A program made the translations under genes and the position numbers. The notes beneath the pieces are model-generated. The model saw only the letters and a list, made by a program, of their open reading frames with translations. It made no database searches and was not told where the DNA came from. From the IMG/VR virus record IMGVR_UViG_3300049215_000227, positions 39,998 to 103,997 of that record: a stretch of 64,000 nt of DNA; one strand, given 5' to 3'. Of this stretch, positions 13,249-63,591 are shown piece by piece; position 1 is the first letter of the stretch; the number at the start of each line of letters is the position of its first letter. Source of the stretch: a virus.

Positions 13249-13543
13249 CGTAGAGCTCGTTGCGTTCAGCAACGACAATCATATCGACACTCACGGTGCC
13301 TATCGTGGAACTCTTTCGAATCCGCGAGACAGACTTCTATCTACGCTTAAAAAACTGGGTCTAAGATCGCCAAACGTTCTCCCTGAGCACGTGTATACAG
13401 TTCCAATCTCTGGGATCTACATGGTTCAGCACATGAACATGAGCAGTGGTCAAAGAGACATGCAGATGACCAGATTCAACGCTGGTGACATAGTTCAAAT
13501 CGACCCCGCTTGCAAGGTGATGATTCACAGGCTCGGTTCCTGA
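13241..13543 (+). CDS. Mini C1q-like domain protein carrying a KLGLRS motif
   Basis: 100 residues. D-T-H-G-A-Y (near 16-21), V-P-I-S-G-I-Y (near 54-60), N-A-G-D-I-V-Q-I-D (about 80-88) and final I-H-R-L-G-S match, in order, segments of the two C-terminal C1q/TNF-like domains of the 1181-residue tail fibre (D-T-H-G-A-Y, V-P-V-T-G-I-Y, N-A-G-D-F-I-D-I, I-H-R-I-G-N). Between the first two lies L-L-S-T-L-K-K-L-G-L-R-S, the signature of the tiny proteins at 54-63 kb. It is translationally coupled to primase and the next gene (TGATG). Function unknown. Confidence 0.75.
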   Translation: MTSVELVAFSNDNHIDTHGAYRGTLSNPRDRLLSTLKKLGLRSPNVLPEHVYTVPISGIYMVQHMNMSSGQRDMQMTRFNAGDIVQIDPACKVMIHRLGS

Positions 13544-46291: not shown

Positions 46292-46867
46292 TTAGCTGAG
46301 ATCGACGTCTCCAGAAGTACCAGCCTGGAAGCTGTCGTCGTAAGCCAAGATGCCTACGAAGCTAAGACGGTCAACCAAGATGCCGCGCTTGTTGATGCCC
46401 GCAGTCTTGCGGTTGAAGCGGCAGTCGGTGATCGTGATGACTGCGCCACTGGTAGGAGCGCCAGTGTTCGTCTCAGCAGGAGACGTAGTGGCTGGATTAC
46501 CAGAAGCAATCTTTTGATAGACGTTCAAGTCCCAAGTTTGAGAGGTCAGCATGCGAGATGGGTTGATCTCGTCAGCGCCGTTACCACCAGTCTTGTAGTT
46601 TACGTTTCCGAGACCGTTACCGTTAGCTGCAGCTCCTGCCATGTTGTTGGCGTTAGCGATGCCGGTGTAGCGAACAACTGAGAGCTCACCGCTCACAGAG
46701 TAGTTCACTGGCTCGTTTGACACTGCTTCGTAGCGACCCATCGTTTCGATCGGTACTGTGTCAACCACTACTTGATAAGAGACGTCAGAGGCGTATGCGA
46801 ACGTAACACCACCTGCGGTGATCTTAGCGTTTGCGCCTGTGACAAATGAAGGGACCTTGCCTGCCAT
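46292..46867 (-). CDS. Tail tube protein
   Basis: 191 residues, beta-rich, directly after the sheath gene, the standard order for contractile tails. The sequence starts F-V-T-G-A-N-A-K-I-T and carries Y-S-V-S-G-E-L-S-V-V-R-Y. Length fits tube proteins of 140-200 residues. Its own leader (46868-46960), a following strong terminator and a preceding one suggest separately controlled, abundant expression. Confidence 0.85.
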   Translation of the reverse strand: MAGKVPSFVTGANAKITAGGVTFAYASDVSYQVVVDTVPIETMGRYEAVSNEPVNYSVSGELSVVRYTGIANANNMAGAAANGNGLGNVNYKTGGNGADEINPSRMLTSQTWDLNVYQKIASGNPATTSPAETNTGAPTSGAVITITDCRFNRKTAGINKRGILVDRLSFVGILAYDDSFQAGTSGDVDLS

Positions 46868-53818: not shown

Positions 53819-54070
53819 ATGGCATTAAGCTCAAGTGATAAGAATGTACTAGAAGAGATCGTCAAGACCGACGGTCAGTGCCTTGACTCGTCGCGATGCA
53901 GACGATGTCCCTTTAGAGCCGCGTGCCTCCCAGAGTTTTTAAACCCAATCCCGCCAAGTCCGCCTCAACGATTAAAGATGGCTCAGGACGTTCTGGCGCA
54001 CCACTATCTCATCGACGACGACGTCGAGATAGAGGAATTTCAGAAAGACAAAAGTGGAAAAACCAATTGA
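53819..54070 (+). CDS. Small Cys-cluster protein, paralogue of upstream gene
   Basis: 83 residues: V-L-E-E-I-V-K-T-D-G-Q-C-L, then C27-x-x-C30-P-F and C36-L-P-E-F, followed by P-S-P-P-Q-R-L-K-M-A and an acidic C-terminus. This form is closer to the phage family I have seen than its neighbour. Its end overlaps the next start by 17 nt. Confidence 0.75.
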   Translation: MALSSSDKNVLEEIVKTDGQCLDSSRCRRCPFRAACLPEFLNPIPPSPPQRLKMAQDVLAHHYLIDDDVEIEEFQKDKSGKTN

Positions 54071-54197
54071 GACAGAGTACTTTGAGAAAGAGTACGACGA
54101 CAAGATAAGGATGCAGCTGTTCATGCTCGTGTTTAAGTTATTAAGCAACGAGCAGGCTCTCCGCGTCTCTAAGTCATGGCAACCTAGACTTATTTAA
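54054..54197 (+). CDS. Tiny protein, KLGIKS-like family (diverged)
   Basis: 47 residues from GTG 54054 (in the +1 frame relative to the previous gene). The hydrophobic helix L-F-M-L-V-F-K-L-L-S then N-E-Q-A-L-R-V follows the family pattern but lacks Gly. Short and without a strong ribosome site; translational coupling to the upstream gene is assumed. Confidence 0.5.
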   Translation: MEKPIETEYFEKEYDDKIRMQLFMLVFKLLSNEQALRVSKSWQPRLI

Positions 54198-54206
54198 GTT
54201 CTCATC

Positions 54207-54215
54207 TGCTATAAT
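54207..54215 (+). promoter_or_regulatory. Extended -10 promoter
   Basis: TGCTATAAT, a perfect extended -10. Initiation is expected near 54222, followed by an AGGAGG ribosome site before the ATG at 54254. Confidence 0.6.
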
Positions 54216-54253
54216 AATCCTATGCCGCATCCCCGCGGTAGATAGGAGGAATC

Positions 54254-54454
54254 ATGCTTAAATCATTAAGAACACTGAGCTTCCTATTCTCTTGCAATCA
54301 ACCAAAGGAAGTAGTATGGACAGCCGCATCGACAAGATTGATGTTAAGCGTGAACACAAAGAGCTCATTGATCTCTTCTACCGCTTGGAGCTCAAACACT
54401 TCCTACAAGTACTCCTATACCGCCGTTCCCGATAGGGGTACAAGAATCCAATGA
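54254..54454 (+). CDS. Hypothetical protein (alternative frame to nested gene)
   Basis: 66 residues. AGGAGGAATC directly before the ATG is among the best ribosome sites in the window, and the stop overlaps the next ATG (ATGA), both supporting translation. The composition after residue 20 is Ser/Thr-rich and unlike its neighbours, as if the frame were a shadow of the nested 39-residue frame. It may be a leader whose translation controls the nested gene. Confidence 0.45.
   Translation: MLKSLRTLSFLFSCNQPKEVVWTAASTRLMLSVNTKSSLISSTAWSSNTSYKYSYTAVPDRGTRIQ
54316..54435 (+). CDS. Nested 39-residue protein
   Basis: Lies wholly within 54254-54454 in another frame. AAAGGAAG precedes its ATG. L-I-D-L-F-Y-R-L-E-L-K follows the tiny-protein family helix pattern and the composition is protein-like. 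The stop is TAG. Confidence 0.45.
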   Translation: MDSRIDKIDVKREHKELIDLFYRLELKHFLQVLLYRRSR

Positions 54455-54744
54455 GCTTCTACGATCGTTTAAACATGGACCAGGTTGAGAGCACCTATAA
54501 GCTCATCAAGGTCCTAGAACGTCTCAGAGTCATTGGTAGGTTAAAAGCTCACACGGAGAAGGCCATCCCTCTCATAGAGATCTTTGGGCATCAAGACGTG
54601 CTGGAGATTATCGACATGACTGGCAACGACTATTGCATAGTTAAGGATAGCTATTCGTCTGACAAGTCTCAGATGTCTGCCGACGAGATGATCGAGGAGA
54701 TATTTGGGAGACGCGGCGTTGGCTTGAGAGGAATCAACTCTTAG
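54451..54744 (+). CDS. Hypothetical protein with N-terminal family-like helix
   Basis: 97 residues. Y-K-L-I-K-V-L-E-R-L-R-V-I-G near the N-terminus resembles the KLGIKS helix. The middle (L-I-E-I-F-G-H-Q-D-V-L-E-I-I) is alpha/beta and the C-terminus is acidic. It converges on the minus gene ending at 54734 with 11 nt overlap. Confidence 0.65.
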   Translation: MSFYDRLNMDQVESTYKLIKVLERLRVIGRLKAHTEKAIPLIEIFGHQDVLEIIDMTGNDYCIVKDSYSSDKSQMSADEMIEEIFGRRGVGLRGINS

Positions 54745-55009
54745 GCGGTTTGCCTAGTTGCTTCATGAGTCCTTCCATAGCTTGAGAGCTCATGATGAGT
54801 TGGTCAGGCTGTCCGTAGTTTTGATACACCTGCGCCTGCAAGTTTGCCAGCATCTGAGCTAGCACCTCTTCCTTCTTATCCACTGCGGACTTGATGCCGA
54901 GTTTGATAAGAAGATTGCGTAGGTTGTGACGGCACTTTCTGCTCTGCCAGTCCCTATTGTTAAGGCTAGCTTCACTTCCGTACCTTGCAAAGTTATCGTC
55001 GTTGATCAC
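54734..55009 (-). CDS. Tiny-protein family member with helical tail
   Basis: 91 residues. L-R-N-L-L-I-K-L-G-I-K-S-A near residues 30-43 is an exact consensus copy of the family motif. A long helical, Gln/Met-rich extension follows. The start overlaps the PagL-like gene stop. Last gene of the minus-strand accessory block. Confidence 0.7.
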   Translation of the reverse strand: MINDDNFARYGSEASLNNRDWQSRKCRHNLRNLLIKLGIKSAVDKKEEVLAQMLANLQAQVYQNYGQPDQLIMSSQAMEGLMKQLGKPPKS

Positions 55010-55497
55010 CAGGGAATCTCCACGTGTACTAGGATGAAGTCTCGACCTCTGTTTGGGTTGTATATGCCCGCAGAGGATATGTGTTTGTAGTCGAGACCGA
55101 TGATGTGACCCTTGTCGTCCTTCACGCCGATCAAGAAGTCTTGGTTGAACTCAAACCAACCGCCGAGCATGCTGTCTGGAGTTGTGATCGCTCCAATGCC
55201 CCACAGAGATCTAAGAACTAGATAACCTGGATTCGCCTCTACTCCTGCAGAGATGTTGCCGAACCCAGAGGAGCTGCGACCGTTGCCGCCTTGATCCGCG
55301 AAGATGCCGCCTTCGTACTGGTAGATGAACGGACCGAACCACTCGTCCTCGTAACCCAGCGAGAAGCTCTTAGTTTCACCTCTGCCGTAGTCAGCGCTGC
55401 TGAACACTCCCAAGCCGTAGCGACCGAACGTTCCAGCTATCGCTGAGCTCGCAGCTAGCAAGCCCGCTATCATTGCCGCTAAGATAAACTTCTTCAT
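55006..55497 (-). CDS. PagL-like outer-membrane lipid A deacylase family protein
   Basis: 163 residues. Residues 1-22 are a signal peptide (M-K-K start, hydrophobic core, A-I-A-G end). The rest alternates as a small beta-barrel. Near the C-terminus, D-Y-K-H139-I-S141-S-A-G-I-x-N-P-N-x-G resembles the active-site strand of PagL (lipid A 3-O-deacylase), whose His and Ser sit two apart. PagL's Glu lies 14 residues after the His; here that position is Asp153. It may trim LPS lipid A of the infected host or act in exclusion. Activity is inferred. Confidence 0.7.
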   Translation of the reverse strand: MKKFILAAMIAGLLAASSAIAGTFGRYGLGVFSSADYGRGETKSFSLGYEDEWFGPFIYQYEGGIFADQGGNGRSSSGFGNISAGVEANPGYLVLRSLWGIGAITTPDSMLGGWFEFNQDFLIGVKDDKGHIIGLDYKHISSAGIYNPNRGRDFILVHVEIPW

Positions 55498-55730
55498 CGC
55501 CTCAAACTCTCCACGCCGTGTCCCGTTGTTCTTACAAATCTGCTAGCGTTAGATTCAAACCGCTTGGTGCGATCGAACCTGCTAAGATGACTGTCGATCA
55601 TCTGCCTTCGATCGTCGCTCACCTCTGACTGACCAATCTGAAACTGGTAGCCAGTTATGTGACCGAAGCGATTGCCATTCTTGTTTCCCCAGGGGTCATG
55701 AAAGCGGCGGCTCCACGCAGAGATCTTCAT
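55494..55730 (-). CDS. Hypothetical basic protein
   Basis: 78 residues, rich in Arg, Ser and Phe, no hydrophobic segment. ATGA overlap with the PagL-like gene suggests coupled translation. TATAAC lies exactly 6 nt before the ATG. Function unknown. Confidence 0.6.
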   Translation of the reverse strand: MKISAWSRRFHDPWGNKNGNRFGHITGYQFQIGQSEVSDDRRQMIDSHLSRFDRTKRFESNASRFVRTTGHGVESLRR

Positions 55731-55736
55731 GCAGTA

Positions 55737-55742
55737 GTTATA
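55737..55742 (-). promoter_or_regulatory. -10-like box 6 nt before ATG (55730)
   Basis: TATAAC, 6 nt (TACTGC), ATG. Almost the same sequence precedes the 56416 gene (TATAAC, TACCGA, ATG). Confidence 0.5.
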
Positions 55743-55871
55743 CTAAGAACTGATCCCACCGTCGGGCCAGGTGTAGAGCACGGCGCGAAGCCTATGACCC
55801 TCAGTGATGATGTCAAGCTTGTACAGAAGCTCGAACAAGCCTCTGCAAGCTCTGCTGTCCTCATACGTCAT
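55743..55871 (-). CDS. Tiny protein, KLGIKS-type family
   Basis: 42 residues: L-F-E-L-L-Y-K-L-D-I-I-T, then H-R-L-R-A-V-L-Y-T-W-P-D-G-G, the family helix plus a likely beta-hairpin. Start overlaps the upstream stop by 11 nt. Stop TAG adjoins the next promoter box. Confidence 0.6.
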   Translation of the reverse strand: MTYEDSRACRGLFELLYKLDIITEGHRLRAVLYTWPDGGISS

Positions 55872-56097
55872 GAGGTCCTTGCCAGGGCTTGTAATCCTTG
55901 TCGGCTTTCTTGATTGGGACGAACTGGATGAAGTCTTTGCTTAGACTCACCATGGCGAGCTCCAAGCACGGTTCTGGCTTTGGACCGTTTGGCTGCAGGA
56001 GCATCTGCGCGTATGACCAGCTCACCTTCCTCATGCCTAGCACTTCGAGCTTGCACAGCAGGATGAGAATGCGAAGTCTTGGGTCGCCAACGTTCAT
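55861..56097 (-). CDS. Tiny-protein family member with C-terminal extension
   Basis: 78 residues from ATG 56097 (AGGAG upstream, TAATG overlap). L-R-I-L-I-L-L-C-K-L-E-V-L-G-M-R-K-V-S-W carries the helix; a longer C-terminus (L-S-K-D-F-I-Q-F-V-P-I-K-K) follows. Function unknown. Confidence 0.6.
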   Translation of the reverse strand: MNVGDPRLRILILLCKLEVLGMRKVSWSYAQMLLQPNGPKPEPCLELAMVSLSKDFIQFVPIKKADKDYKPWQGPHDV

Positions 56098-56237
56098 TAC
56101 CAAGCTCCTGGCAGAGTTGTGTCCGCGAACATGCGAAAGATTTTAGCCTTGCGAACGCCAAGCTTGTGCAATAGGTACAGAAGATCTCTCTTAGCTACCA
56201 TGCCTCTCTTCTGGGAGTACATCAGCTCGTAGTTCAT
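56097..56237 (-). CDS. Tiny protein, KLGIKS-type family
   Basis: 46 residues: L-L-Y-L-L-H-K-L-G-V-R-K-A-K-I-F in the centre, with a basic N-terminus. ATGA and TAATG overlaps on both sides tie it into the minus-strand run. Confidence 0.65.
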   Translation of the reverse strand: MNYELMYSQKRGMVAKRDLLYLLHKLGVRKAKIFRMFADTTLPGAW

Positions 56238-56416
56238 ACGACCTCGTAAAGATAAGCAGCACTCTTCAAGCCGAGCTTCTTAAGGATGCTAACTAGGCAG
56301 TCGGCGTGATGGTAGTTGGTTCTGTCTGGAAAGATGCCGGTGGTGCTGATGACGTGATGGGAGATTCTAAGCATGTCGATCTCGCGCTCAAAGTAGTACA
56401 GAATACGTCGCTGCAT
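56234..56416 (-). CDS. Tiny protein, KLGIKS-type family
   Basis: 60 residues. L-V-S-I-L-K-K-L-G-L-K-S-A-A-Y-L-Y-E-V-V forms the C-terminus; the N-terminal 35 residues are His/Arg-rich. TATAAC is 6 nt before the ATG. Confidence 0.68.
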   Translation of the reverse strand: MQRRILYYFEREIDMLRISHHVISTTGIFPDRTNYHHADCLVSILKKLGLKSAAYLYEVV

Positions 56417-56422
56417 TCGGTA

Positions 56423-56428
56423 GTTATA
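56423..56428 (-). promoter_or_regulatory. -10-like box 6 nt before ATG (56416)
   Basis: TATAAC, 6 nt, ATG on the minus strand; no ribosome site. Confidence 0.5.
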
Positions 56429-56431
56429 CTC

Positions 56432-56716
56432 TTACTGGCCGACGCCAGGGTTCTGATCCTCGTAGACAGAATCTACTAGATGCGTTGGCTTTCCCCACTT
56501 GCGCCTGCCGACGAGGTGCGCTGGCTTAGGTCGCTTGCCCCCTCCGTGGTCGTGGAGCGCCCCGCGCGTGCCGCGATCTTCCGGAAGTCTTCCCTCTCTG
56601 GTGCTCGCGGAGATGCTCCTGTGAGGCGTGTTGCCCGGCATGTCGGCGTCCTTTGGATCGGTGAGAGCCTTGTGCAAGGTCCACTGACCGTTCTGAGCGA
56701 AGGTGAGATATTCCAT
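56432..56716 (-). CDS. Hypothetical protein (frame uncertain)
   Basis: 94 residues, Arg/Gly/His-rich and probably disordered after residue 30. GAGAG lies before the ATG. Two other long frames cover the same DNA (56476-56781 minus, 56480-56758 plus); this one is preferred because it fits the spacing to the neighbouring minus genes. The gap 56717-56794 shows no gene. Confidence 0.45.
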   Translation of the reverse strand: MEYLTFAQNGQWTLHKALTDPKDADMPGNTPHRSISASTREGRLPEDRGTRGALHDHGGGKRPKPAHLVGRRKWGKPTHLVDSVYEDQNPGVGQ

Positions 56717-56794
56717 AGCTCTCTAGATTCTATCACCCAGCGAAGCTTCTCTTCCTGAGCATCGGCGTGCCCCCACCCCACTCAGTTTTTAACT

Positions 56795-57010
56795 TCAAGG
56801 CAACTTACGTCCAGCGAAGAAGTAGTAGTGGTTCTCGCCGTCCGGCGACATCCTAGCGCTGAGCGCTTGCCTGATGCCGAGCTTGTTGAGAAGCTCGCTG
56901 AGGTTGAACATGGCGATAAACTTGTGCTCGTCGACGCTCGGCACGACCCTGCTGGTCTTCTTGTGGTAGCTGCAGTAAGCGCATGTGCACGCCTGCCCGT
57001 GGTTAGTCAC
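56795..57010 (-). CDS. Tiny-protein family member with Cys cluster
   Basis: 71 residues. C8-x-C10-x-x-C13 near the start, then L-S-E-L-L-N-K-L-G-I-R-Q-A-L-S-A-R-M and a hairpin-like P-D-G-E-N-H-Y-Y-F-F-A-G. The start is GTG 57010, overlapping the upstream gene. Shows the full motif-plus-hairpin layout. Confidence 0.62.
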   Translation of the reverse strand: MTNHGQACTCAYCSYHKKTSRVVPSVDEHKFIAMFNLSELLNKLGIRQALSARMSPDGENHYYFFAGRKLP

Positions 57011-57176
57011 CGCACACCTGCACGGTCTCGTACAAGGGCTCGTAAACGCACGAGTTGCTGCTGCAATCGTGTTCCCTCATGCCGACCACCTTCTTAACGT
57101 CGTGGCACATAGTCTGGTTGACAGGTATGGCCCAAAACGTTATCGTCATCGCGAGTATCAAGATGATGTATCTCAT
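57003..57176 (-). CDS. Small exported or membrane Cys-containing protein
   Basis: 57 residues. Residues 2-18 are hydrophobic (signal or anchor); four Cys (24, 38, 42, 55) in the outer part could form disulphides. ATGA overlap with the upstream gene. No KLG motif. Function unknown. Confidence 0.6.
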   Translation of the reverse strand: MRYIILILAMTITFWAIPVNQTMCHDVKKVVGMREHDCSSNSCVYEPLYETVQVCGD

Positions 57177-57397
57177 TGGTGCCTCTCGTGAAGCAGCTTG
57201 TGCAGCAGCTGAAACAGCCTGTTGCGGGCCACAAACTGGTCAGCGTCATCTATGAGCTGGTAAGTGTTGGGGCACGAGCAGCGCGGCAAGACCGGCCACA
57301 GCTTGAGGTGTTTCGTGTCGAACGTTACGGCCTTAAGTGTGGACTCTAGCGACTCAACGAGTAGGGGACCAGGGCTTGACGTTTTGTTACTCGACAC
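57173..57397 (-). CDS. Tiny-protein family member (motif at C-terminus)
   Basis: 74 residues from GTG 57397, which overlaps the upstream stop. The C-terminus L-F-Q-L-L-H-K-L-L-H-E-R is the helix without the Gly-Ile-Ser end. Confidence 0.55.
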   Translation of the reverse strand: MSSNKTSSPGPLLVESLESTLKAVTFDTKHLKLWPVLPRCSCPNTYQLIDDADQFVARNRLFQLLHKLLHERHQ

Positions 57398-57641
57398 GCA
57401 TGCCTCCGCGGAGACCTAGCTTATGCAGCAACACCATCAAGTAGAGGTGCTGGACGCTTATGAACGGGACCCAGCCCGGGATATGGGTAACTCTGAGTAT
57501 CTCCTGCTTGTACTCCGCGTGGAGCGGCGTGTTAACCAAGAAGCGCATGAGACGGTCGTGGGTGTTGGCCTTCTCGTAAGCGTCCCAGATGTAGGCGCGT
57601 GCGCGGTCGAGGAGTAGGTTTGGTTCTTTGTGAGTTTCCAT
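57387..57641 (-). CDS. Tiny-protein family member
   Basis: 84 residues. The C-terminal L-Y-L-M-V-L-L-H-K-L-G-L-R-G-G matches the motif; the first 65 residues are helical and unrelated to its neighbours. TATAAT exactly 6 nt before the ATG. Confidence 0.68.
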   Translation of the reverse strand: METHKEPNLLLDRARAYIWDAYEKANTHDRLMRFLVNTPLHAEYKQEILRVTHIPGWVPFISVQHLYLMVLLHKLGLRGGMRVE

Positions 57642-57647
57642 ATTCGT

Positions 57648-57653
57648 ATTATA
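57648..57653 (-). promoter_or_regulatory. -10 box 6 nt before ATG (57641)
   Basis: TATAAT, 6 nt (ACGAAT), ATG. A 29-bp repeat with tandem GTACCC units lies just upstream. Confidence 0.55.
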
Positions 57654-57657
57654 CGAA

Positions 57658-57686
57658 GGGTACAGGGTACCGCGCGAACCTATTAG
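57658..57686 (-). repeat. 29-bp repeat, copy 1
   Basis: On the plus strand GGGTAC-A-GGGTACC then AACCTATTAG. It shares 23 of 29 positions with 58045-58073. Both copies lie directly upstream of a minus-strand -10 box, so an operator or upstream promoter element is likely. Confidence 0.65.
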
Positions 57687-57841
57687 GGGTGCTTGTATAG
57701 GCCTAGCTTAGTGAGGAGGTTGAGGAGTTTGTATAGTTGGTTTGAGCTGTAAACCACGGTGCCGACGGATTGGCGGGTAACCTTGTGAGGGCGGTTGTTG
57801 GGTGCGGACTTGAAGATGCGGCGGTGCCAGAAGGAGATCAT
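57683..57841 (-). CDS. Tiny protein, KLGIKS-type family
   Basis: 52 residues: basic N-terminus, then L-Y-K-L-L-N-L-L-T-K-L-G-L-Y-K at the C-terminus. Start overlaps the upstream stop (ATGA); the stop lies inside the 29-bp repeat. Confidence 0.62.
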   Translation of the reverse strand: MISFWHRRIFKSAPNNRPHKVTRQSVGTVVYSSNQLYKLLNLLTKLGLYKHP

Positions 57842-58023
57842 GTGTCGTGAGGAGTGATGGTGAACGGGTTGAGGTAGCTGTTTGGGAAGTTGTGAGCCGC
57901 TGCGAAGAGGGCGAAGGGTACGTCGCGAGTGGTGTTGCTTAGTAGGTAGGTGCGTAGGCTGCTGGGTGTAGTTACCCTGAGCTTAGTGAGTAGAAGCACG
58001 AGGTTGTCGTAATGATCGTACAT
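57838..58023 (-). CDS. Tiny protein, KLGIKS-type family
   Basis: 61 residues from ATG 58023: L-V-L-L-L-T-K-L-R-V-T-T-P-S-S-L, then a Phe/Ala/Asn-rich tail. An in-frame ATG at 58083 would add 20 residues but would place the promoter box inside the gene. Confidence 0.6.
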   Translation of the reverse strand: MYDHYDNLVLLLTKLRVTTPSSLRTYLLSNTTRDVPFALFAAAHNFPNSYLNPFTITPHDT

Positions 58024-58028
58024 TTTTA

Positions 58029-58036
58029 TATTTATA
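58029..58036 (-). promoter_or_regulatory. TATAAATA box before ATG (58023)
   Basis: TATAAATA is the T4-type late promoter sequence and also fits a -10 box; its TATAAA core lies 7 nt before the ATG. Confidence 0.45.
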
Positions 58037-58044
58037 CCCGCGTG

Positions 58045-58073
58045 GGGTACGGGGTACCTGTGAAACCTATTAG
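58045..58073 (-). repeat. 29-bp repeat, copy 2
   Basis: GGGTAC-G-GGGTACC then AACCTATTAG; see copy 1 at 57658-57686. Located just upstream of the TATAAATA box. Confidence 0.65.
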
Positions 58074-58120
58074 AAAAGCTCATGTACGCGGCGTCCGCGC
58101 AGTGGGTACCAGTCCCGACT

Positions 58121-58134
58121 CAAGGGATCCCTTG
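58121..58134. promoter_or_regulatory. 14-bp perfect palindrome
   Basis: CAAGGGATCCCTTG in the divergent region between the minus and plus tiny-gene blocks. It could be a repressor site; a CCTTG/CAAGG hairpin overlaps it. The rest of 58084-58201 has no gene. Confidence 0.4.
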
Positions 58135-58201
58135 TAAGGCAAGGCCAGCGGGCCCTGTTTCAGCATTAGGCACTTAGCAAACCCGATCCTAAGGAGAACG
58201 T

Positions 58202-58360
58202 ATGAGAATGGGATTCGAGAGGAAAGTTAACTACGTATACTGGAATGCGTCCCTGCTTAACAAGCGGATCAGCTATCCAGAGGCGCTGCGGATCGCCAAC
58301 AAGTTTTCGGAAGAGGAGCTGCGCCGAATCTATCTTAAGTTGAAAGCGAGGAACGTATGA
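58202..58360 (+). CDS. Hypothetical small protein
   Basis: 52 residues, basic and aromatic (Y-V-Y-W-N-A-S-L-L) with a helical C-terminus. TAAGGAGA ribosome site. First gene of the right plus-strand block; TGA overlaps the next ATG. Confidence 0.62.
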   Translation: MRMGFERKVNYVYWNASLLNKRISYPEALRIANKFSEEELRRIYLKLKARNV

Positions 58361-58581
58361 CAGTTCAACAGATCAAGAACCAGATCAGGGACTTACAGGT
58401 CGCGCTTGCCCAGAACAACCTGGAGTTGAAGCGGGAGACGAGAGCGAATCGGACCATGAATCTGCCTCGGCTTATGGAAGCTCGATACCAGATCATGCTC
58501 ACGATCGCCCACAGGCAGGGATTGTTGATCCAGATCCTCGAGACAGAGGTTGCATACCAGACTACGAAGGAGGTCGCATGA
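58357..58581 (+). CDS. Hypothetical coiled-coil protein
   Basis: 74 residues, almost entirely helical with a heptad-like pattern (I-K-N-Q-I-R-D-L-Q-V-A-L). ATGA overlap upstream and 4-nt overlap downstream. Function unknown. Confidence 0.65.
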   Translation: MTVQQIKNQIRDLQVALAQNNLELKRETRANRTMNLPRLMEARYQIMLTIAHRQGLLIQILETEVAYQTTKEVA

Positions 58582-58688
58582 AGGTGTTTGATAGAGCGAT
58601 TGAGTGGACGATGATTGGCATAGCGATCTGGGCAGTGGTTGGCGCTGTCCAGATCCTAGGCGAGATTGGGAGGGTATTCCATGGCTGA
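58578..58688 (+). CDS. Tiny single-span membrane protein
   Basis: 36 residues with one hydrophobic helix (I-G-I-A-I-W-A-V-V-G-A-V). A strong AAGGAGG precedes the ATG. Overlaps both neighbours by 4-8 nt. Confidence 0.6.
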   Translation: MKVFDRAIEWTMIGIAIWAVVGAVQILGEIGRVFHG

Positions 58689-58839
58689 TGACAGGAAGGC
58701 GTTCGAGGAGTTCTTGAAGAGAGACGAGAAGGAGCTAACTGTAGCGGACTTAGGTCCGGACGACTTCGAGTGCAACTGCGAGATGTGCACGCTTGGATGG
58801 TCCATCATCCCTGCAGGCACTGACCAGAAGAGCGGATAG
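58681..58839 (+). CDS. Small acidic Cys-containing protein
   Basis: 52 residues, acidic N-terminus, C-N-C-E-M-C cluster near residue 33. GGGAGG upstream. A metal site is possible. Stop TAG. Confidence 0.58.
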   Translation: MADDRKAFEEFLKRDEKELTVADLGPDDFECNCEMCTLGWSIIPAGTDQKSG

Positions 58840-58846
58840 GGCATAG

Positions 58847-58868
58847 GGCGAGGGACATCCACCTCGCC
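58847..58868 (+). terminator. Hairpin after the 58202-58839 operon
   Basis: GGCGAGG/CCTCGCC with an 8-nt loop; no U-tract. It stands before the first copy of the 15-nt element. Confidence 0.45.
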
Positions 58869-58884
58869 TACGCCTATTCCCCTA

Positions 58885-58900
58885 CTGACACTGCTACGCC
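58885..58900 (+). repeat. CTGACACTGCTACGC element, copy 1
   Basis: Intergenic CTGACACTGCTACGCC, found three times in the plus-strand block (also 59581, 60427), each after a hairpin. The CTGACA part resembles a -35 box but no consistent -10 follows. The rest of 58901-59059 is a 160-nt leader with TTGAAA, 18 nt, CATAAC as a weak promoter. Confidence 0.65.
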
Positions 58901-59059
58901 AGCGCCCCGAGACTATATAACAAATTCCCCACAATATTGGTTTAACGGTGATTACCCGACTCTATATCTAGTTGTAAGCGAAACGGTCGATCGGAAATCA
59001 AAATTGAAATCTGAAACGATCGGTTAGCATAACAAACAGGTCTTAACGGAGGAACGATT

Positions 59060-59533
59060 ATGACCAAGATGACTCAGAAGGAAGCAGTTTTCAGCGCAGT
59101 AACCAACGTCTGCCAACCAGTCGGCGAGAACCACTTCGCACCGACGAAGGAAGAGCGCGCTCAGATCAACCAGATCCTGTTCGAAGGTTTTCGGTCTGGC
59201 AAGATCGAGTTGGAGAAGGAGTACGACGACTCTGGTCTCAAGGCATACGTGAGCGGACTTCAGTCCAACTGGCTTCGCAAGGACAAGCGCCTGAACGGTG
59301 GCGTGGCGTACGTCGCCAAGAACCCTGGTTCTCGCGCTGGATCGACTGATCCGCAAGTCAAGGCGATGCGTCAGCTCTTGGCAACCAAGACTGACCCGAG
59401 CGAGCGCGCTGAGATCCAAGCGTTCATCGACAAGCGCGTCGCTGAGATCAAGCCGACCAAGTCCGTCGAGCTGAGCGCTGAGCAGATCGCCACGCTCGAA
59501 GCCGCTGGTCTCGGTCACCTGATCGCTGGCTAA
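59060..59533 (+). CDS. Conserved-looking, probably abundant phage protein
   Basis: 157 residues, helical, with a well-structured core: Q-I-N-Q-I-L-F-E-G-F-R-S-G-K-I, Y-V-S-G-L-Q-S-N-W-L-R-K-D-K-R-L-N-G-G and K-N-P-G-S-R-A-G-S-T-D-P-Q. I recall similar proteins in other large phages, without known function. A long leader, strong GGAGG site and its own downstream terminator suggest high expression. Codon use looks more biased than in the tiny genes around it. Confidence 0.82.
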   Translation: MTKMTQKEAVFSAVTNVCQPVGENHFAPTKEERAQINQILFEGFRSGKIELEKEYDDSGLKAYVSGLQSNWLRKDKRLNGGVAYVAKNPGSRAGSTDPQVKAMRQLLATKTDPSERAEIQAFIDKRVAEIKPTKSVELSAEQIATLEAAGLGHLIAG

Positions 59534-59544
59534 GCAACAAGTTA

Positions 59545-59578
59545 GGTTGGGGACTGGGCGACAAGCCTGGTCCCCACC
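59545..59578 (+). terminator. Terminator-like hairpin after the 59060 gene
   Basis: GGTTGGGGACTGGGC pairs with GCCTGGTCCCCACC (one bulge, two wobbles). There is no U-tract; the 15-nt element starts 3 nt later. Confidence 0.55.
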
Positions 59579-59580
59579 AA

Positions 59581-59595
59581 CTGACACTGCTACGC
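59581..59595 (+). repeat. CTGACACTGCTACGC element, copy 2
   Basis: Exact 15-nt match with copies at 58885 and 60427; 46 nt before the next ATG. GATCCTA follows at 59614, as GATCCTAA does before the 58202 and 60509 genes. Confidence 0.65.
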
Positions 59596-59641
59596 ACGGA
59601 CCCACCCTGTCCCGATCCTACATCTACCTAACGGAGGACAT

Positions 59642-59929
59642 ATGAGAGGACATAAGTTCGTCATCATAGTCGGAGACAGTTACATCCTTGAGGACTACGA
59701 CCTGACTCAAGAAGTCAGCGACCAGATCGAGTGGAACGAAGACCCATACCTCGCCGTGGTTACGCTCCCGCACGAGAACTTCTCCGACAACGTGGTGGTC
59801 CTAACTCACGCTGCCGACGCGGAGGACGAGACGTGGGTCGTGAGGGATGTGAAGGGTCGACTCTGGTATTACATGGACGTAATGTCGAAGATGGACCTGA
59901 TCCTAAACATGGAGCAGACGGAGGATTAA
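59642..59929 (+). CDS. Hypothetical acidic protein
   Basis: 95 residues of mixed alpha/beta (F-V-I-I-V-G-D-S-Y-I-L-E-D-Y), very acidic. ACGGAGGA ribosome site. Function unknown. Confidence 0.72.
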   Translation: MRGHKFVIIVGDSYILEDYDLTQEVSDQIEWNEDPYLAVVTLPHENFSDNVVVLTHAADAEDETWVVRDVKGRLWYYMDVMSKMDLILNMEQTED

Positions 59930-59932
59930 GTC

Positions 59933-60331
59933 ATGAACCATCAACTTTGCTACCTAGCGCTGCTCTGCCAGCAGAAGAACGATCTCAACCGGAGGCGCAG
60001 GCGCTTCCACGCGCTGAGACCCAAGACTAAGTGGCTCGGATACGACGCCAACCAGAAGCCGATGTACGCCGAGTATGCCCCTCACCGCGCCTACACGCTG
60101 GAGGAGATCTACGCCGGCTACCAGAAGGCGCAGTCCGACATGAAGGCGATGACCAAGGAGATGCGCCAGGTCCAGAAGCTGGCAGGTGCAACCCTGCACT
60201 GGGGCGACTCAGGTCAGATCCAAGCCATCGTGCTCAACGGCGAGGGTTATTACAGGGATCGCTGCATCTACCCTAAGCAATGGGCAAGACTCATCGACCT
60301 CTACCAAGCTGACGAGATACTTCTCAAGTAG
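59933..60331 (+). CDS. Hypothetical basic protein
   Basis: 132 residues with an Arg-rich start (N-R-R-R-R-R-F-H) and a helical middle (A-M-T-K-E-M-R-Q-V-Q-K-L-A). It follows the acidic 95-residue protein by 3 nt, so the pair may bind each other. Stop TAG. Function unknown. Confidence 0.7.
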   Translation: MNHQLCYLALLCQQKNDLNRRRRRFHALRPKTKWLGYDANQKPMYAEYAPHRAYTLEEIYAGYQKAQSDMKAMTKEMRQVQKLAGATLHWGDSGQIQAIVLNGEGYYRDRCIYPKQWARLIDLYQADEILLK

Positions 60332-60376
60332 GGAAACAGCTACCGACTACCAGTCAATAGACCCATAGAAGCTCAG

Positions 60377-60409
60377 GGGACTAGCCGAATGTCGGGATAG
60401 GCTAGTCCC
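60377..60409 (+). terminator. Terminator-like hairpin after the 59642-60331 pair
   Basis: Perfect 10-bp stem GGGACTAGCC/GGCTAGTCCC, 13-nt loop, no U-tract. It precedes copy 3 of the 15-nt element. Confidence 0.55.
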
Positions 60410-60426
60410 AACCACCCGATACCCTG

Positions 60427-60442
60427 CTGACACTGCTACGCC
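60427..60442 (+). repeat. CTGACACTGCTACGC element, copy 3
   Basis: Exact 15-nt match; 16 nt identical to copy 1. The rest of 60443-60508 is a leader with TACAAT at about 60484. Confidence 0.65.
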
Positions 60443-60508
60443 GATGCCTCAGGGCCAAGTCGGCTACCCTTCAGGTCCACACATACAATCCTGATCCTAA
60501 TTCCCCAC

Positions 60509-60742
60509 ATGGATGTATGGGAGAGGTGGGTGAGACGATCACTCGAGGATTGTCATAGAGCGAGAAAAGATCTTCAGGTCAAACTCCCTTTGATGCCTGA
60601 AGACCACCTGTTCCTCCTGACCCTTAGGAGGATGGACGCTAGGTATCGGCTGATCAGATTATTGCTTAAGCTTAATTCTAAGTCAGCTGATGCTATTCGG
60701 TGGGCGTCGGGGCTCACCCAGCCTCCAGGAGATGTGGCCTAA
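60509..60742 (+). CDS. Tiny-protein family member with N-terminal extension
   Basis: 77 residues. R-L-I-R-L-L-L-K-L-N-S-K-S-A-D-A-I-R-W at about 48-66 is a clear family motif. The first 45 residues are helical and charged. First gene of an operon of such genes; TAATG overlap with the next. Confidence 0.7.
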   Translation: MDVWERWVRRSLEDCHRARKDLQVKLPLMPEDHLFLLTLRRMDARYRLIRLLLKLNSKSADAIRWASGLTQPPGDVA

Positions 60743-60945
60743 TGAAATCAGCATGTTACATAGCCAGTCGAGTGTTTGGAGCTAGAGTGGACAGTGCGGA
60801 GGTAGCATCCTTAGGGAGGCTTCTAGGACTATTAGGGAAGCTGGGGATCAGTAGCCAATCAGTGCATATCACGTGGTTCTACAGAGGGGCTCGATTGGAA
60901 GGGCTGGGAGTAGGCAGCAAGTATAGGCAGATGAGCCAGAAGTAG
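60742..60945 (+). CDS. Tiny protein, KLGIKS-type family
   Basis: 67 residues: R-L-L-G-L-L-G-K-L-G-I-S-S, then V-H-I-T-W-F-Y-R-G-A-R-L-E-G as a likely beta-hairpin. One of the best examples of helix plus hairpin. ATG 60742 overlaps the previous stop; stop TAG. Confidence 0.7.
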   Translation: MKSACYIASRVFGARVDSAEVASLGRLLGLLGKLGISSQSVHITWFYRGARLEGLGVGSKYRQMSQK

Positions 60946-60957
60946 GGGTTATTCAGC

Positions 60958-61119
60958 ATGAACGGGATGCCACAGTTTGAGCCCTTTGACGCAGTCGTCA
61001 AGCTGCTTAATATCCTGGTTCGCCTCAACGTTAAGAGCGCTAGGAGAGATGTCATATTGAAGTCTTACTTAGGCGGCATAGATTCCTACCTAGAGCGAGT
61101 GGGTAAGAGGCGTGACTAA
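60958..61119 (+). CDS. Tiny protein, KLGIKS-type family
   Basis: 53 residues: V-V-K-L-L-N-I-L-V-R-L-N-V-K-S-A-R-R-D-V-I. AGGGG lies 11 nt before the ATG. End overlaps the next GTG start. Confidence 0.65.
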   Translation: MNGMPQFEPFDAVVKLLNILVRLNVKSARRDVILKSYLGGIDSYLERVGKRRD

Positions 61120-61366
61120 GATTACGAACATTAGGAGTATGGGTTGCGAGGTGTGTAACGGGACTGAGATGTCCTACGCTCGCACTGTTGCTAAAGCCCA
61201 AAATATAGTCTCTAATAAGTGGTTTGCAACCTACAGGGAGAGGTGGCTAGACGAGCTTAGTCCTGGTAGAGATGTTGACTGCATGATGTGCGCTAGGATT
61301 GGGTTCGGTGTTAAGGTCGTTCTCGTTGACCTGCTGGATAAGTTGAGAGTTATGAGACATGAGTAG
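61112..61366 (+). CDS. Double CxxC protein with family helix at C-terminus
   Basis: 84 residues from GTG 61112. C12-x-x-C15 and C57-x-x-C60 suggest one zinc site; G-F-G-V-K-V-V-L-V-D-L-L-D-K-L-R-V ends the protein. A tandem paralogue follows. Stop TAG overlaps the next ATG region. Confidence 0.68.
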   Translation: MTKITNIRSMGCEVCNGTEMSYARTVAKAQNIVSNKWFATYRERWLDELSPGRDVDCMMCARIGFGVKVVLVDLLDKLRVMRHE

Positions 61367-61595
61367 AAAAAGACATAGTTGCTCCGTATGTGGTAATAAA
61401 AGCATAAAGCGCTCGCCAAAATTAACTATCGAATATGCTTCACGATTTGTGCGACGTGGGTTAGTAAATTATCACCTTCAGAGAGAATTTCTATGTTTGG
61501 AAAGAAAACCTGGGGAGTGTGTAACTTGTCTCCAGGTAGGAACGGGATCGAAGATAATTCTAGTTAACATGTTAGAACGATTGGATGTTTTATAG
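61359..61595 (+). CDS. Double CxxC protein, tandem paralogue
   Basis: 78 residues. C8-x-x-C11 and C54-x-x-C57, then G-T-G-S-K-I-I-L-V-N-M-L-E-R-L-D-V-L. Same layout as the gene before it with low identity. The A+T content is higher than in its neighbours. Stop TAG shares a G with the next GTG. Confidence 0.68.
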   Translation: MSRKRHSCSVCGNKSIKRSPKLTIEYASRFVRRGLVNYHLQREFLCLERKPGECVTCLQVGTGSKIILVNMLERLDVL

Positions 61596-61732
61596 TGGAT
61601 AAGGACTTGTTAAGGAATAGGGCTGTAGACGATTTACTTTATCTCCTATTCATGCTTGAGGCGATAAGTAACGACGTTTGGGACGATGCTTGCTCGAGAT
61701 TATCCCTCAGCAGATTGAAGAGCAAGCTATGA
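61595..61732 (+). CDS. Tiny protein, family-like helix
   Basis: 45 residues from GTG: V-D-D-L-L-Y-L-L-F-M-L-E-A-I-S-N-D-V-W. It aligns with the V-D-K-L-I-Y-V-L-F-L-L-G-I-Q-S of the next gene, so the two look like diverged tandem copies. Confidence 0.55.
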   Translation: MDKDLLRNRAVDDLLYLLFMLEAISNDVWDDACSRLSLSRLKSKL

Positions 61733-61893
61733 ATTACAGGGTTAGACGATCCGTAGATAAGCTCATCTATGTCCTGTTTCTGCTTGGCATTCAGTCAACT
61801 AAAGATAGGCGACTTCAGGGAACTGAGACCTTGTACTACTGCGAGCGCGTTTACAGAGTTATAGGTCCAAAGCGCTGGCAGTGGGAGCAATGA
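61729..61893 (+). CDS. Tiny protein, KLGIKS-type family
   Basis: 54 residues: V-D-K-L-I-Y-V-L-F-L-L-G-I-Q-S, then R-R-L-Q-G-T-E-T-L-Y-Y-C-E-R-V-Y as hairpin. ATGA overlap with the previous gene. Confidence 0.65.
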   Translation: MNYRVRRSVDKLIYVLFLLGIQSTKDRRLQGTETLYYCERVYRVIGPKRWQWEQ

Positions 61894-61896
61894 GAT

Positions 61897-62064
61897 ATGG
61901 GCAGCAAGAGGGGTGCTATAGCTACGTTTGGCTTGCTGAGACTGCTGGCATTGCTGGGCAACAAGGGCGTTAAGGCTAAGTTTGAGAGCAACGGGCACGT
62001 AGACGTGGTTGCTATCGGTTACTACGCGAGGAAGTATGAGCGGAAATCACAAGCGGAAGACTAG
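61897..62064 (+). CDS. Tiny protein, KLGIKS-type family
   Basis: 55 residues: L-L-R-L-L-A-L-L-G-N-K-G-V-K-A, then F-E-S-N-G-H-V-D-V-V-A-I-G-Y-Y as hairpin, and a basic tail. It overlaps the next gene by 29 nt in another frame. Confidence 0.6.
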   Translation: MGSKRGAIATFGLLRLLALLGNKGVKAKFESNGHVDVVAIGYYARKYERKSQAED

Positions 62065-62191
62065 AAAACTGAGGCGCGAGCGAAAGTTTAGGTCGACAAA
62101 CGACTTGATCACTCTGCTTCAGAAGCTGGATATCGTTGAGTCCTGGAAGCTAAGAGGTGTGTGGAAGTTTGTGTATAGGTTTGAATCATGA
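62036..62191 (+). CDS. Tiny basic protein, KLGIKS-type family
   Basis: 51 residues: Arg/Lys-rich N-terminus, D-L-I-T-L-L-Q-K-L-D-I-V-E-S, then L-R-G-V-W-K-F-V-Y-R-F. GAGGAAG ribosome site fixes the start. Confidence 0.66.
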   Translation: MSGNHKRKTRKLRRERKFRSTNDLITLLQKLDIVESWKLRGVWKFVYRFES

Positions 62192-62334
62192 GTCAAAAAA
62201 GAATAGAAGAGCAACGACAAGTAAGAGCTGTATATTGTTTATTTCGACTTCTTAGTAAGTTTAAGTTGTTAAAAGGAACTGTCTCTGGTATAAGAGTTGA
62301 AATTAACGGTAGCATGTACAACCTTGATTTCTGA
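62188..62334 (+). CDS. Tiny protein, KLGIKS-type family
   Basis: 48 residues: V-Y-C-L-F-R-L-L-S-K-F-K-L-L-K, then V-S-G-I-R-V-E-I-N-G-S-M-Y-N-L as hairpin. ATGA overlap. Confidence 0.62.
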   Translation: MSQKRIEEQRQVRAVYCLFRLLSKFKLLKGTVSGIRVEINGSMYNLDF

Positions 62335-62361
62335 ACATATCCATGCTTGGAGAAAATCTTT

Positions 62362-62778
62362 ATGAGTCAGATAGTGATGGACAATATTCAGGCTGAGGCA
62401 TATCGCTTCGTCAAGGACGGAACCCCAATGAATGAGCGAGGTCCTCAATGGACTGAGTTCACTCGTTCTGCTATTGCTGAGGCACGCAAGCGAGTAGAGC
62501 ACGAGGAACTTCTTAAGGTTGAGAAGTCTGAACGCAATCTCGCTACTAAGCAAGGATTGTCGTACGACGAGTGGCTTGAGAAAGCTAAGAAGCTTTACTC
62601 TATCGACCAGCAGACAGCTGTCGTCACAAGCATCGCTTTGGGACCAGATCACGGCAAGACTTGGGAATGTGAGAGCTACGTAGACGCTCGCAAGCGCGTT
62701 CTCAAGCTGATGCAATACAAGAAGTACGATCACTTCGTTCGTGGTCACGACTTCGCATACGACCCGGATAAGGCATGA
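62362..62778 (+). CDS. Hypothetical protein
   Basis: 138 residues from ATG 62362 (GGAGA upstream; a TTG at 62347 is less likely). Helical and charged: Y-R-F-V-K-D-G, E-L-L-K-V-E-K-S-E-R-N-L, then W-E-C-E-S-Y-V-D-A-R-K-R-V. Function unknown; ATGA overlap with the next gene. Confidence 0.72.
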   Translation: MSQIVMDNIQAEAYRFVKDGTPMNERGPQWTEFTRSAIAEARKRVEHEELLKVEKSERNLATKQGLSYDEWLEKAKKLYSIDQQTAVVTSIALGPDHGKTWECESYVDARKRVLKLMQYKKYDHFVRGHDFAYDPDKA

Positions 62779-62972
62779 GTGAAGAGAAGATCACTGTCAA
62801 AGACTACACTTCGCACTCTAATCGTGTGCTTAATCGCGCTATTGCATTGCGCAAGAAGCAGATCGAGCGTGCTGAGGCAGGCAACAACAGGACGGATAAG
62901 TCAATAGCTCAACTCAAGTATGAGTTGGAAGCAATGACCAACACTCTCCTAGAAAGGGCGATGACTAAATGA
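62775..62972 (+). CDS. Hypothetical coiled-coil protein
   Basis: 65 residues, helical and charged (A-I-A-L-R-K-K-Q-I-E-R-A). ATGA overlaps on both sides. No family recognised. Confidence 0.68.
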   Translation: MSEEKITVKDYTSHSNRVLNRAIALRKKQIERAEAGNNRTDKSIAQLKYELEAMTNTLLERAMTK

Positions 62973-63262
62973 GAAAGTGCGACAAGAAGCGACTCAAAAA
63001 GATTCGTCACGACCAAAAGATTCAGCGCTGCAAGAGTAGGTTAAGAGCTCGTCTCATCTCTGTTGCTGTCGGCAATAACGTTATGCCTCACACTCCGACT
63101 ATTGAGGTGATAGTTCAACTGGTTCAACTTACTCCATTGAAGGAGCTCAAGATCATTGAGTCTAATCAGTCTCGCTTCCAGAACTTTCCCATGCGAGAGC
63201 ATTTGTTTCGACTGGTTGTAGATGAGATCGCATTAAGATCGTTGAGGATAGATCACGAGTGA
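62969..63262 (+). CDS. Hypothetical basic protein
   Basis: 97 residues with a Lys/Arg-rich first third and a helical I-E-V-I-V-Q-L-V-Q-L-T-P-L. It may bind nucleic acid. ATGA upstream, TGATG downstream. Confidence 0.66.
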   Translation: MRKCDKKRLKKIRHDQKIQRCKSRLRARLISVAVGNNVMPHTPTIEVIVQLVQLTPLKELKIIESNQSRFQNFPMREHLFRLVVDEIALRSLRIDHE

Positions 63263-63591
63263 TGATGCCATCGCCATTTGCTATCAACGATCTAGTTACT
63301 GGCAAAGATAAGTCTTACCTGAGGTCTGTCTACAAATACATTGGTCACACCGACGATCCTGAGTCAGGCATATTTGAGTTGGTAACGTATAAGCGTCAGT
63401 GCGTGGATTACTTTCGTCATGCGAAGGCGAGATCAACTGTCTACACGTTCAAGAGAAGATACGACGAGTTTGTCTTGGCCAGCAGTGAGGAGATTGCTAA
63501 GTCAAATAAAACGCGTGCAACCTACATGCTTTGCTACGTGCTGGACAAATTAGGTGTTGGGTCAGCTCACGACTACACGACTCCCTTCTGA
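63262..63591 (+). CDS. Hypothetical protein ending in the KLGIKS-type motif
   Basis: 109 residues. The first 85 have the look of a small folded domain (Y-K-Y-I-G-H-T-D-D-P-E-S-G-I-F-E-L-V-T-Y-K). The C-terminus Y-M-L-C-Y-V-L-D-K-L-G-V-G-S-A-H is the family motif, so this is a fusion. ATG 63262 overlaps the previous stop; a GTG one codon earlier is possible. Confidence 0.68.
   Translation: MMPSPFAINDLVTGKDKSYLRSVYKYIGHTDDPESGIFELVTYKRQCVDYFRHAKARSTVYTFKRRYDEFVLASSEEIAKSNKTRATYMLCYVLDKLGVGSAHDYTTPF

What the first reader, a model, noticed from the sequence alone, without database searches (positions are those of the whole stretch)
54054..63591. Expanded family of tiny proteins sharing a [LI]LxKLG[IL][KR]S helix motif
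At least 20 proteins of 39-109 residues share a hydrophobic helix of the form x-L-[LIV]-x-L-L-x-K-L-G-[IVL]-[KR]-S. In the best cases (60742, 61729, 61897, 62036, 62188, 55743, 56795) a probable two-stranded hairpin with a central Gly and Tyr/Phe/Trp follows. They occur in plus and minus runs, overlap by ATGA or TAATG, and differ strongly outside the motif. The motif is also fused to other domains (63262, 61112/61359 with CxxC pairs) and to larger proteins at 3092 and 13241. Such expansion with divergence suggests selection for variety, for example against host defences or to bind different host proteins. I know of no description of this family.
Basis: partly seen in the sequence, partly recalled or inferred. 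Interest (0 to 1): 0.8.

Follow-up and report, generated by a model that had tools for sequence, protein, structure and literature searches.

The report
Tiny phage proteins carrying virion-protein pieces
This phage and its relatives carry dozens of tiny, fast-changing genes whose proteins share one short helix, and some of them join that helix to pieces copied from the phage's own shell, tail-tube and tail-sheath proteins, which suggests an undescribed class of molecular mimics, perhaps used to fool bacterial defences that recognise those virion proteins.

Summary
The family is real and larger than reported. A profile of the 22-residue core finds 158 members at >=9 bits in this 176.5-kb myovirus and its relatives, against 4 (shuffled) and 6 (reversed) by chance. 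Invariant Leu columns use all six Leu codons, so selection acts on protein. Only about 17 residues are shared; motif position varies, and no common alpha-beta-beta fold is seen.

New: some members join the helix to segments of the phage's virion proteins: MCP N-terminal arm, MCP A-domain, tail-tube N-terminus, sheath N-terminus, glycine-rich adhesin. One subgroup with an invariant CSCP...LLHxLLH C-terminal part carries an MCP, tube, tube and sheath segment in four phages (0/2000 shuffles each). Residues are kept while codons diverge.

Best reading: modular virion-protein mimics with a common docking helix, most likely decoys for host sensors of capsid, tube and sheath proteins. The modular mimicry is shown; the decoy role is inferred (about 0.4). 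Rivals are assembly cofactors and interference with co-infecting phages. Partner, expression and function are untested.

The parts
54451..54744 (+). motif member, 97 aa; one of two relatively conserved members next to the structural module (homologues in 5 relatives)
   Evidence: 13.2 bits; homologue group of 6 sequences incl. window
54734..55009 (-). motif member, 91 aa; helix followed by a segment like the MCP A-domain (NYGQPDQLIMSSQAMEGLMKQ)
   Evidence: 19.4 bits; group of 8 phages vs MCP hhalign E 3.7e-4; AF2 helix 18-36 then GIKS turn
55743..55871 (-). motif member, 42 aa
   Evidence: 19.3 bits, AGGA upstream of start
55861..56097 (-). motif member, 78 aa
   Evidence: 11.6 bits, AGGAG upstream of ATG 56097
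56097..56237 (-). motif member, 46 aa
   Evidence: 21.7 bits
56234..56416 (-). probable member, 60 aa, motif near C-terminus (LVSILKKLGLKSA)
   Evidence: 7.2 bits in an early iteration; below the 9-bit cut
56795..57010 (-). motif member, 71 aa, with an N-terminal CxCAYCSYH part
   Evidence: 16.2 bits; group with L010:7611-7805 and L011:775-981
57173..57397 (-). virion mimic: MCP N-terminal arm segment (GPLLVESLESTLKAVTFDTKHLKLWPVLP) + CSCP + variant helix LFQLLHKLLH; GTG start with GGAGG
   Evidence: MCP HMM 27.2 bits, 0/2000 shuffles; CSCP/LLHxLLH module shared with three relatives; RBS
57387..57641 (-). motif member, 84 aa, motif at C-terminus
   Evidence: 17.6 bits; homologue in G002
57683..57841 (-). 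motif member, 52 aa, motif at C-terminus
   Evidence: 16.9 bits
57838..58083 (-). motif member, 81 aa
   Evidence: 14.5 bits
60509..60742 (+). motif member, 77 aa
   Evidence: 17.5 bits
60742..60945 (+). motif member, 67 aa from ATG 60742 (AGGAG)
   Evidence: 15.3 bits; relative L012:1518-1664
60958..61119 (+). motif member, 53 aa
   Evidence: 17.4 bits
61112..61366 (+). member with CxxC pairs and C-terminal motif, 84 aa
   Evidence: 9.3 bits
61359..61595 (+). probable member with CxxC pairs and C-terminal helix, 78 aa
   Evidence: sequence only; below profile cut
61595..61732 (+). motif member, 45 aa
   Evidence: 13.7 bits
61729..61893 (+). probable member, 54 aa
   Evidence: sequence only (KLIYVLFLLGIQS); below profile cut
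61897..62064 (+). probable member, 55 aa, GGAG RBS
   Evidence: sequence only (LLRLLALLGNKG); below profile cut
62036..62191 (+). motif member, 51 aa from ATG 62036 (GAGG)
   Evidence: 15.9 bits
62188..62334 (+). probable member, 48 aa
   Evidence: sequence only (CLFRLLSKFKLLK); below profile cut
63262..63591 (+). motif member, 109 aa, motif near C-terminus
   Evidence: 15.9 bits
3092..3664 (-). 190-aa protein with internal motif, directly upstream of the phage groEL gene
   Evidence: 12.7 bits; G002 protein (33.5% identical) 8.4 bits and G003 protein L077:6205-6795 6.8 bits keep the motif
13241..13543 (+). 100-aa protein with motif (LLSTLKKLGLRSP)
   Evidence: 10.4 bits
47030..49234 (-). tail sheath gene; its N-terminal 20 aa are imitated by members in G001, L015, G005 and G002
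   Evidence: phrog_279 2.1e-32; hhalign 97%
46292..46867 (-). probable tail tube gene; its N-terminus is imitated by members in G005, G001, L012
   Evidence: tube assignment by position and sequence, no PHROG hit

Best explanation
The tiny genes encode modular mimic proteins. One module is common: a three-turn amphipathic helix with consensus [AS]xx[NRDK]L[LIF]x[LFM]Lx[KR]L[GN][IVL]x[ST]A that ends in a Gly/Asn + hydrophobic helix cap. The other module is exchangeable, and in the cases that can be read it is a short segment of a virion protein: MCP arm, MCP A-domain, tube or sheath N-terminus, adhesin. Shown: the shared helix, its protein-level conservation, the virion segments, and the swapping of segments on a constant C-terminal module. 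Inferred: the exchangeable segment occupies the site on whatever recognises that virion protein, while the helix docks on one common partner (not identified). The most likely use is as decoys: small competitors that keep host sensors from being triggered by newly made capsid, tube and sheath protein. Members without a recognisable virion segment would imitate other triggers or have diverged.
For: Common helix: 158 members vs 4 shuffled and 6 reversed; all six Leu codons at invariant Leu; in long ORFs (405,187 aa) only 2 hits >=10 bits, one of which is a short gene read with an over-long start. Virion segments: masked members vs large phage proteins give 18 matches at E<=0.01 against 0 in five shuffles (one of the 18 is a homologue of the 3092 protein, not a mimic). 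Swapped subgroup CSCP...LLHxLLH: G000 matches only MCP, G001 and L012 only tube, G002 only sheath, 0/2000 shuffles each. The same segments are used independently in other members: MCP arm in the capsid module of G002, L117 and L192, sheath N-terminus in G001, L015 and G005, tube in G005. Codons diverge while residues stay. Turnover is higher than for other small genes. Precedents: CapRel is switched on by newly made MCP, and a short peptide (Gol) inside T4 MCP activates Lit (PMC9712102); DSR2 senses tail tube and phage DSAD1 occupies the same site (PMC11087589); Tha senses tail proteins (PMC11087260).
Against: No host, sensor, expression or interaction data. Most members have no detectable virion segment. 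A decoy does not by itself explain one helix common to all. Some members lie in the capsid module, which suits an assembly role equally well. Mimics are no closer to the phage's own virion proteins than to those of relatives, so they are not tuned to self at this resolution. Segment conservation in the sources is high, so detection is biased to conserved segments.
Confidence: 0.4

Rival explanations
1. Assembly cofactors: the segments let each tiny protein dock into the capsid, tube or sheath lattice of the same phage (placeholder or cap against premature polymerisation), and the helix recruits a shared assembly factor such as the phage's own chaperonin.
For: Sources are lattice-forming proteins and mostly their N-terminal arms; the G002, L117 and L192 MCP-arm members sit in the capsid module; L117:6540-6770 aligns with MCP residues 1-75 with the helix in place of the LNKALTAGYGGAGKPT stretch; a motif protein lies directly upstream of phage groEL.
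Against: Assembly factors should be conserved, yet most members turn over even between phages with 90% identical MCP. GroEL is also present in G007 and Mx1, which lack the family. Far more members than lattices.
Confidence: 0.25
2. Interference with co-infecting relatives: the tiny proteins poison the capsid, tube or sheath assembly of competing phages by mimicking contact segments, as a phage-phage weapon.
For: Rapid turnover; mimics match relatives' proteins as well as their own; a prophage protein (Tab) that blocks tail assembly of other phages is known (PMC10884400).
Against: Own MCP, tube and sheath share these segments almost unchanged, so self-poisoning would be expected; no protecting partner was seen.
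Confidence: 0.15
3. Ordinary paralogous family with a helix-hairpin fold; virion similarities are old gene-fragment captures without a role.
For: Some members have Gly and aromatic residues after the helix; members are collinear with ATGA/TAATG overlaps.
Against: Only about 17 residues are shared and the motif can be C-terminal; AF2 gives no strands; codons diverge but residues stay in virion segments; segments recur in independent subgroups.
Confidence: 0.1
4. Virion-packaged, injected proteins in the manner of the T4 internal proteins, with the helix as a packaging signal.
For: One short shared element on otherwise unrelated small proteins is the logic of the T4 capsid targeting sequence.
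Against: Motif position is free (N-terminal, middle, C-terminal); tube and sheath segments make no sense for head packaging.
Confidence: 0.07

Closest known systems
DSAD1 (phage anti-DSR2 protein) and the virion-triggered sensors DSR2, CapRel, Tha, Lit/Gol
   Same: A small phage protein that sits where a virion protein would bind a host sensor (DSAD1 on DSR2); MCP and tail proteins are the recognised triggers.
   Different: DSAD1 is described as a single inhibitor; here a multi-gene family shares one helix and carries readable segments of MCP, tube and sheath. No sensor is known for this host.
T4 internal proteins (IPI-IPIII) with a capsid targeting sequence
   Same: Small, variable proteins united by one short shared element (from general knowledge; papers listed were not read).
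   Different: Here the element is not confined to the N-terminus, it is a helix with a C-cap, and the variable parts include virion segments.
Tab (tail assembly blocker, Pseudomonas prophage)
   Same: A phage-encoded protein that acts on virion assembly of other phages.
   Different: Tab is a single prophage protein aimed at the tape measure pathway; no mimic segments or shared helix are described in what was read (abstract and outline).
MCP N-terminal element repeated at the C-terminus of the head maturation protease of these same phages
   Same: Reuse of the MCP N-terminal segment (KALTAGYGGAGxPT...ESLE) on another protein.
   Different: That is one conserved large protein without the LLxKLG helix.

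Membership tests
Helix family as defined here | 22-residue profile retrieves members left out of training, above shuffles and reversals | tested here: met
Helix family as defined here | Conservation at the protein, not DNA, level | tested here: met
   AF2 low confidence, no strands; motif is C-terminal in several members, so it cannot be general
Known Pfam/PHROG family | Match to a curated family over the helix | tested here: not met
   no member above a Pfam cut-off; only weak PHROG hits
T4-type internal proteins | Shared element at the N-terminus (capsid targeting sequence) | tested here: not met
   motif position varies freely along the protein
T4-type internal proteins | Presence in the virion | not testable with these tools
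   needs proteomics
DSAD1-like sensor decoys | Mimics or replaces a virion protein at a sensor's binding site | tested here: inconclusive
   virion-protein segments present; sensor binding untested
DSAD1-like sensor decoys | Inhibits a defence system | not testable with these tools
   needs plaque assays
Tab-like assembly blockers | Blocks virion assembly of another phage | not testable with these tools
   needs co-infection or expression assay

The most novel reading that the evidence does not exclude
A class of phage proteins in which one common docking helix is combined with exchangeable segments of the phage's own virion proteins, giving each phage a rapidly changing set of 10-30 miniature bait proteins that divert host sensors of capsid, tube and sheath.
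Probability: 0.35. Interest if true: 0.92.

Novelty: categorically new. Interest (0 to 1): 0.78.

Why it matters
Several bacterial immune systems are now known to be triggered by capsid and tail proteins, which a phage cannot simply drop. A phage gene family that carries short pieces of exactly these proteins on a common handle would be a general answer to that problem, and would give a sequence signature for finding both the decoys and the sensors they address. Even if the role is assembly or phage-phage interference, a family built by swapping virion segments onto one helix is a form of protein evolution I have not seen described.

Tried and rejected
Chance or generic amphipathic helix: rejected by shuffled and reversed controls. 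DNA repeat read in several frames: rejected by codon use. Known family: Pfam and PHROGs gave nothing over the helix; the PDB profile search gave only weak generic helices, e.g. V-ATPase and HTH regulators. Homology of variable parts to named phages: none at E<=0.5 with the concatenated query, an insensitive test. Host: a genome-contig scan with MCP found phage contigs binned in Bacteroidota MAGs, not accepted as host evidence. Hub by phyletic pattern: GroEL and others are also present in phages without the family, so no hub named. 105944 (G000) looked by eye like a tube mimic but fails the shuffle test, so it was dropped. Similarity of the GETDxxLxxRI group to baseplate wedge proteins is only suggestive (E 0.6; hhalign E 0.02 to another tail-module protein). 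Own-versus-other comparison of mimics did not discriminate decoy from interference.
Full report
Setting. The window is bases 39998-103997 of a 176,504-bp IMG/VR virus record. It is a contractile-tailed phage: tail sheath, virion proteins, DnaB-like helicase, primase and its own GroEL are present. The nearest named relative by sheath is Myxococcus phage Mx1 (33% aa); a virion protein also matches SPO1-like phages at about 27%. A lipid A deacylase-like protein (PagL, 55006-55497) points to a Gram-negative host. The host is unknown.

Is the motif real? I took eight minus-strand cores of 18 residues, built a profile and searched all ORFs of the genome. Left-out ORFs on both strands were found at 10.9-16 bits, above the best of ten shuffled sets (9.4 bits). 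In relatives found through a neighbouring virion protein it found 34 hits at >=10 bits against 2 in shuffles. After iteration on own and relative genomes there are 158 members at >=9 bits against 4 shuffled and 6 reversed: 34 in this virus, 28 in G002, 22 in G001, 9 in G005, 5 in G003. An independent search of whole records found none at E<=1 in G006, G007 and Mx1. A further 35 lie in MCP neighbourhoods of other relatives (2 in shuffles). At the invariant Leu columns all six Leu codons occur and third-base identity is 0.23-0.28, so this is protein-level conservation and not a DNA repeat.

What is shared? Only about 17 residues: [AS]xx[NRDK]L[LIF]x[LFM]Lx[KR]L[GN...][IVL]x[STP][A]. Outside them no column shows a clear preference. 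Gly or Asn followed by a hydrophobic residue after the helix fits a helix C-cap of the Schellman type (my reading of the consensus). The motif may be N-terminal, central or at the very C-terminus. AF2 of the 54734 group predicts the helix at 18-36 followed by a turn (overall pLDDT 65.5). The proposed alpha-beta-beta fold is therefore not supported. Clustering gives 122 groups among 157 members. Groups are unrelated to each other outside the helix but conserved within themselves, for example a CxxC group with a C-terminal helix.

Virion-protein segments. A profile of the 54734 group pulled in the major capsid protein (MCP = phrog_752, 1e-58). I then masked the helix and compared members with all large phage proteins: 18 matches at E<=0.01, none in five shuffles. 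One of the 18 is a homologue of the 190-aa 3092 protein rather than a mimic, and three are to unassigned proteins; the rest fall on virion proteins or tail-module proteins. They are: the MCP N-terminal arm (about residues 46-77), MCP A-domain (about 228-267; domain assignment from general knowledge of the HK97 fold), tail tube N-terminus (4-32), sheath N-terminus (1-20), a glycine-rich adhesin, and a 1200-aa protein of the tail module. Profile searches agree, as do hhalign (sheath 97%; MCP A-domain E 3.7e-4) and, weakly, the public PHROG profile of major head protein at the right positions.

Modularity. Four phages carry a protein with an invariant C-terminal part CSCP...LxxLLHxLLH a few kilobases from the same virion gene. 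Its N-terminal half is the MCP arm in this virus (57173-57397), tube N-terminus in G001 (L009:6325-6537) and L012 (4816-5016), and sheath N-terminus in G002 (L068:16173-16349). Each matches only its own source, with 0 of 2000 shuffles reaching the score. Other subgroups use the same segments independently: the MCP arm C-terminal to the helix in G002 (L063:7198-7374), L117 and L192, encoded about 3-4 kb upstream of the MCP gene (in G002 immediately before the head protease gene), and the sheath N-terminus in G001, L015 and G005. In L117 the protein aligns with MCP residues 1-75 with the helix in place of LNKALTAGYGGAGKPT. Codons have diverged while residues are kept, so these are not fresh duplications. 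They are not closest to the phage's own protein.

Turnover. Among small genes passing the same coding-score filter, 3/14 motif genes and 40/66 others have a homologue in G002 (Fisher p 0.016). With length limited to 85 aa the difference (3/10 vs 19/39) is not significant. I take faster turnover as likely, not proven.

Mechanism. Shown: common helix, exchangeable segments, virion origin of some segments. Inferred: the segment competes for whatever binds that part of the virion protein, and the helix docks on one partner. I prefer host sensors as the target, because CapRel is activated by newly synthesised MCP and a short MCP peptide (Gol) activates Lit (PMC9712102), DSR2 senses tail tube and is blocked by DSAD1 at the same site (PMC11087589), Tha senses tail proteins (PMC11087260), and a variable gene set is what a contest predicts. 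Assembly cofactors and interference with competitors (compare Tab, PMC10884400) remain open.

Limits. No expression, interaction or host data. Gene calls are my own and some weak members may be spurious. Most members have no readable segment. Two AF2 models only, both of low overall confidence. The literature search covered open-access papers only and found no description of such a family.

Noticed in passing
window 6347-6421 and 6427-6502: Two adjacent tRNA genes with anticodon CTA (ARAGORN calls them tRNA-Pyl), i.e. possible amber suppressors; several ORFs here end in TAG.
   Followed up: no
window 55006-55497 (-): Secreted PagL-like lipid A deacylase (Pfam 33.5 bits, cut-off 23) inside the cluster of tiny genes.
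   Followed up: no
window 1365-3664: Phage GroEL gene (1365-3092) preceded by a 190-aa gene that carries the helix motif; the motif is kept in G002 (33.5% identical protein) and in a G003 protein.
   Followed up: partly
L002:17385-19067 and L063:7399-9057: Head maturation protease ends in a copy of the MCP N-terminal element (KALTAGYGGAGxPT...ESLE) followed by a zinc-ribbon-like CxxC...CxxC part.
   Followed up: partly
window 56432-56716; L010:7314-7598; L068:804-1115; L098:520-906; L014:2789-3193: A second short element, roughly NGQW[STA]LxK, recurs in otherwise different phage proteins, also inside the tiny-gene cluster.
   Followed up: no
L115:2843, L117:4509, L119:4336, L133:3405, L192:4665: A conserved subgroup upstream of the MCP gene with the pattern LLKxLYRLxII....ALxIAxxFxxFFV.
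   Followed up: no
window 50964-52523 (-): One protein matches NUDIX hydrolase (5e-19) and, weakly, portal profiles in PHROGs.
   Followed up: no
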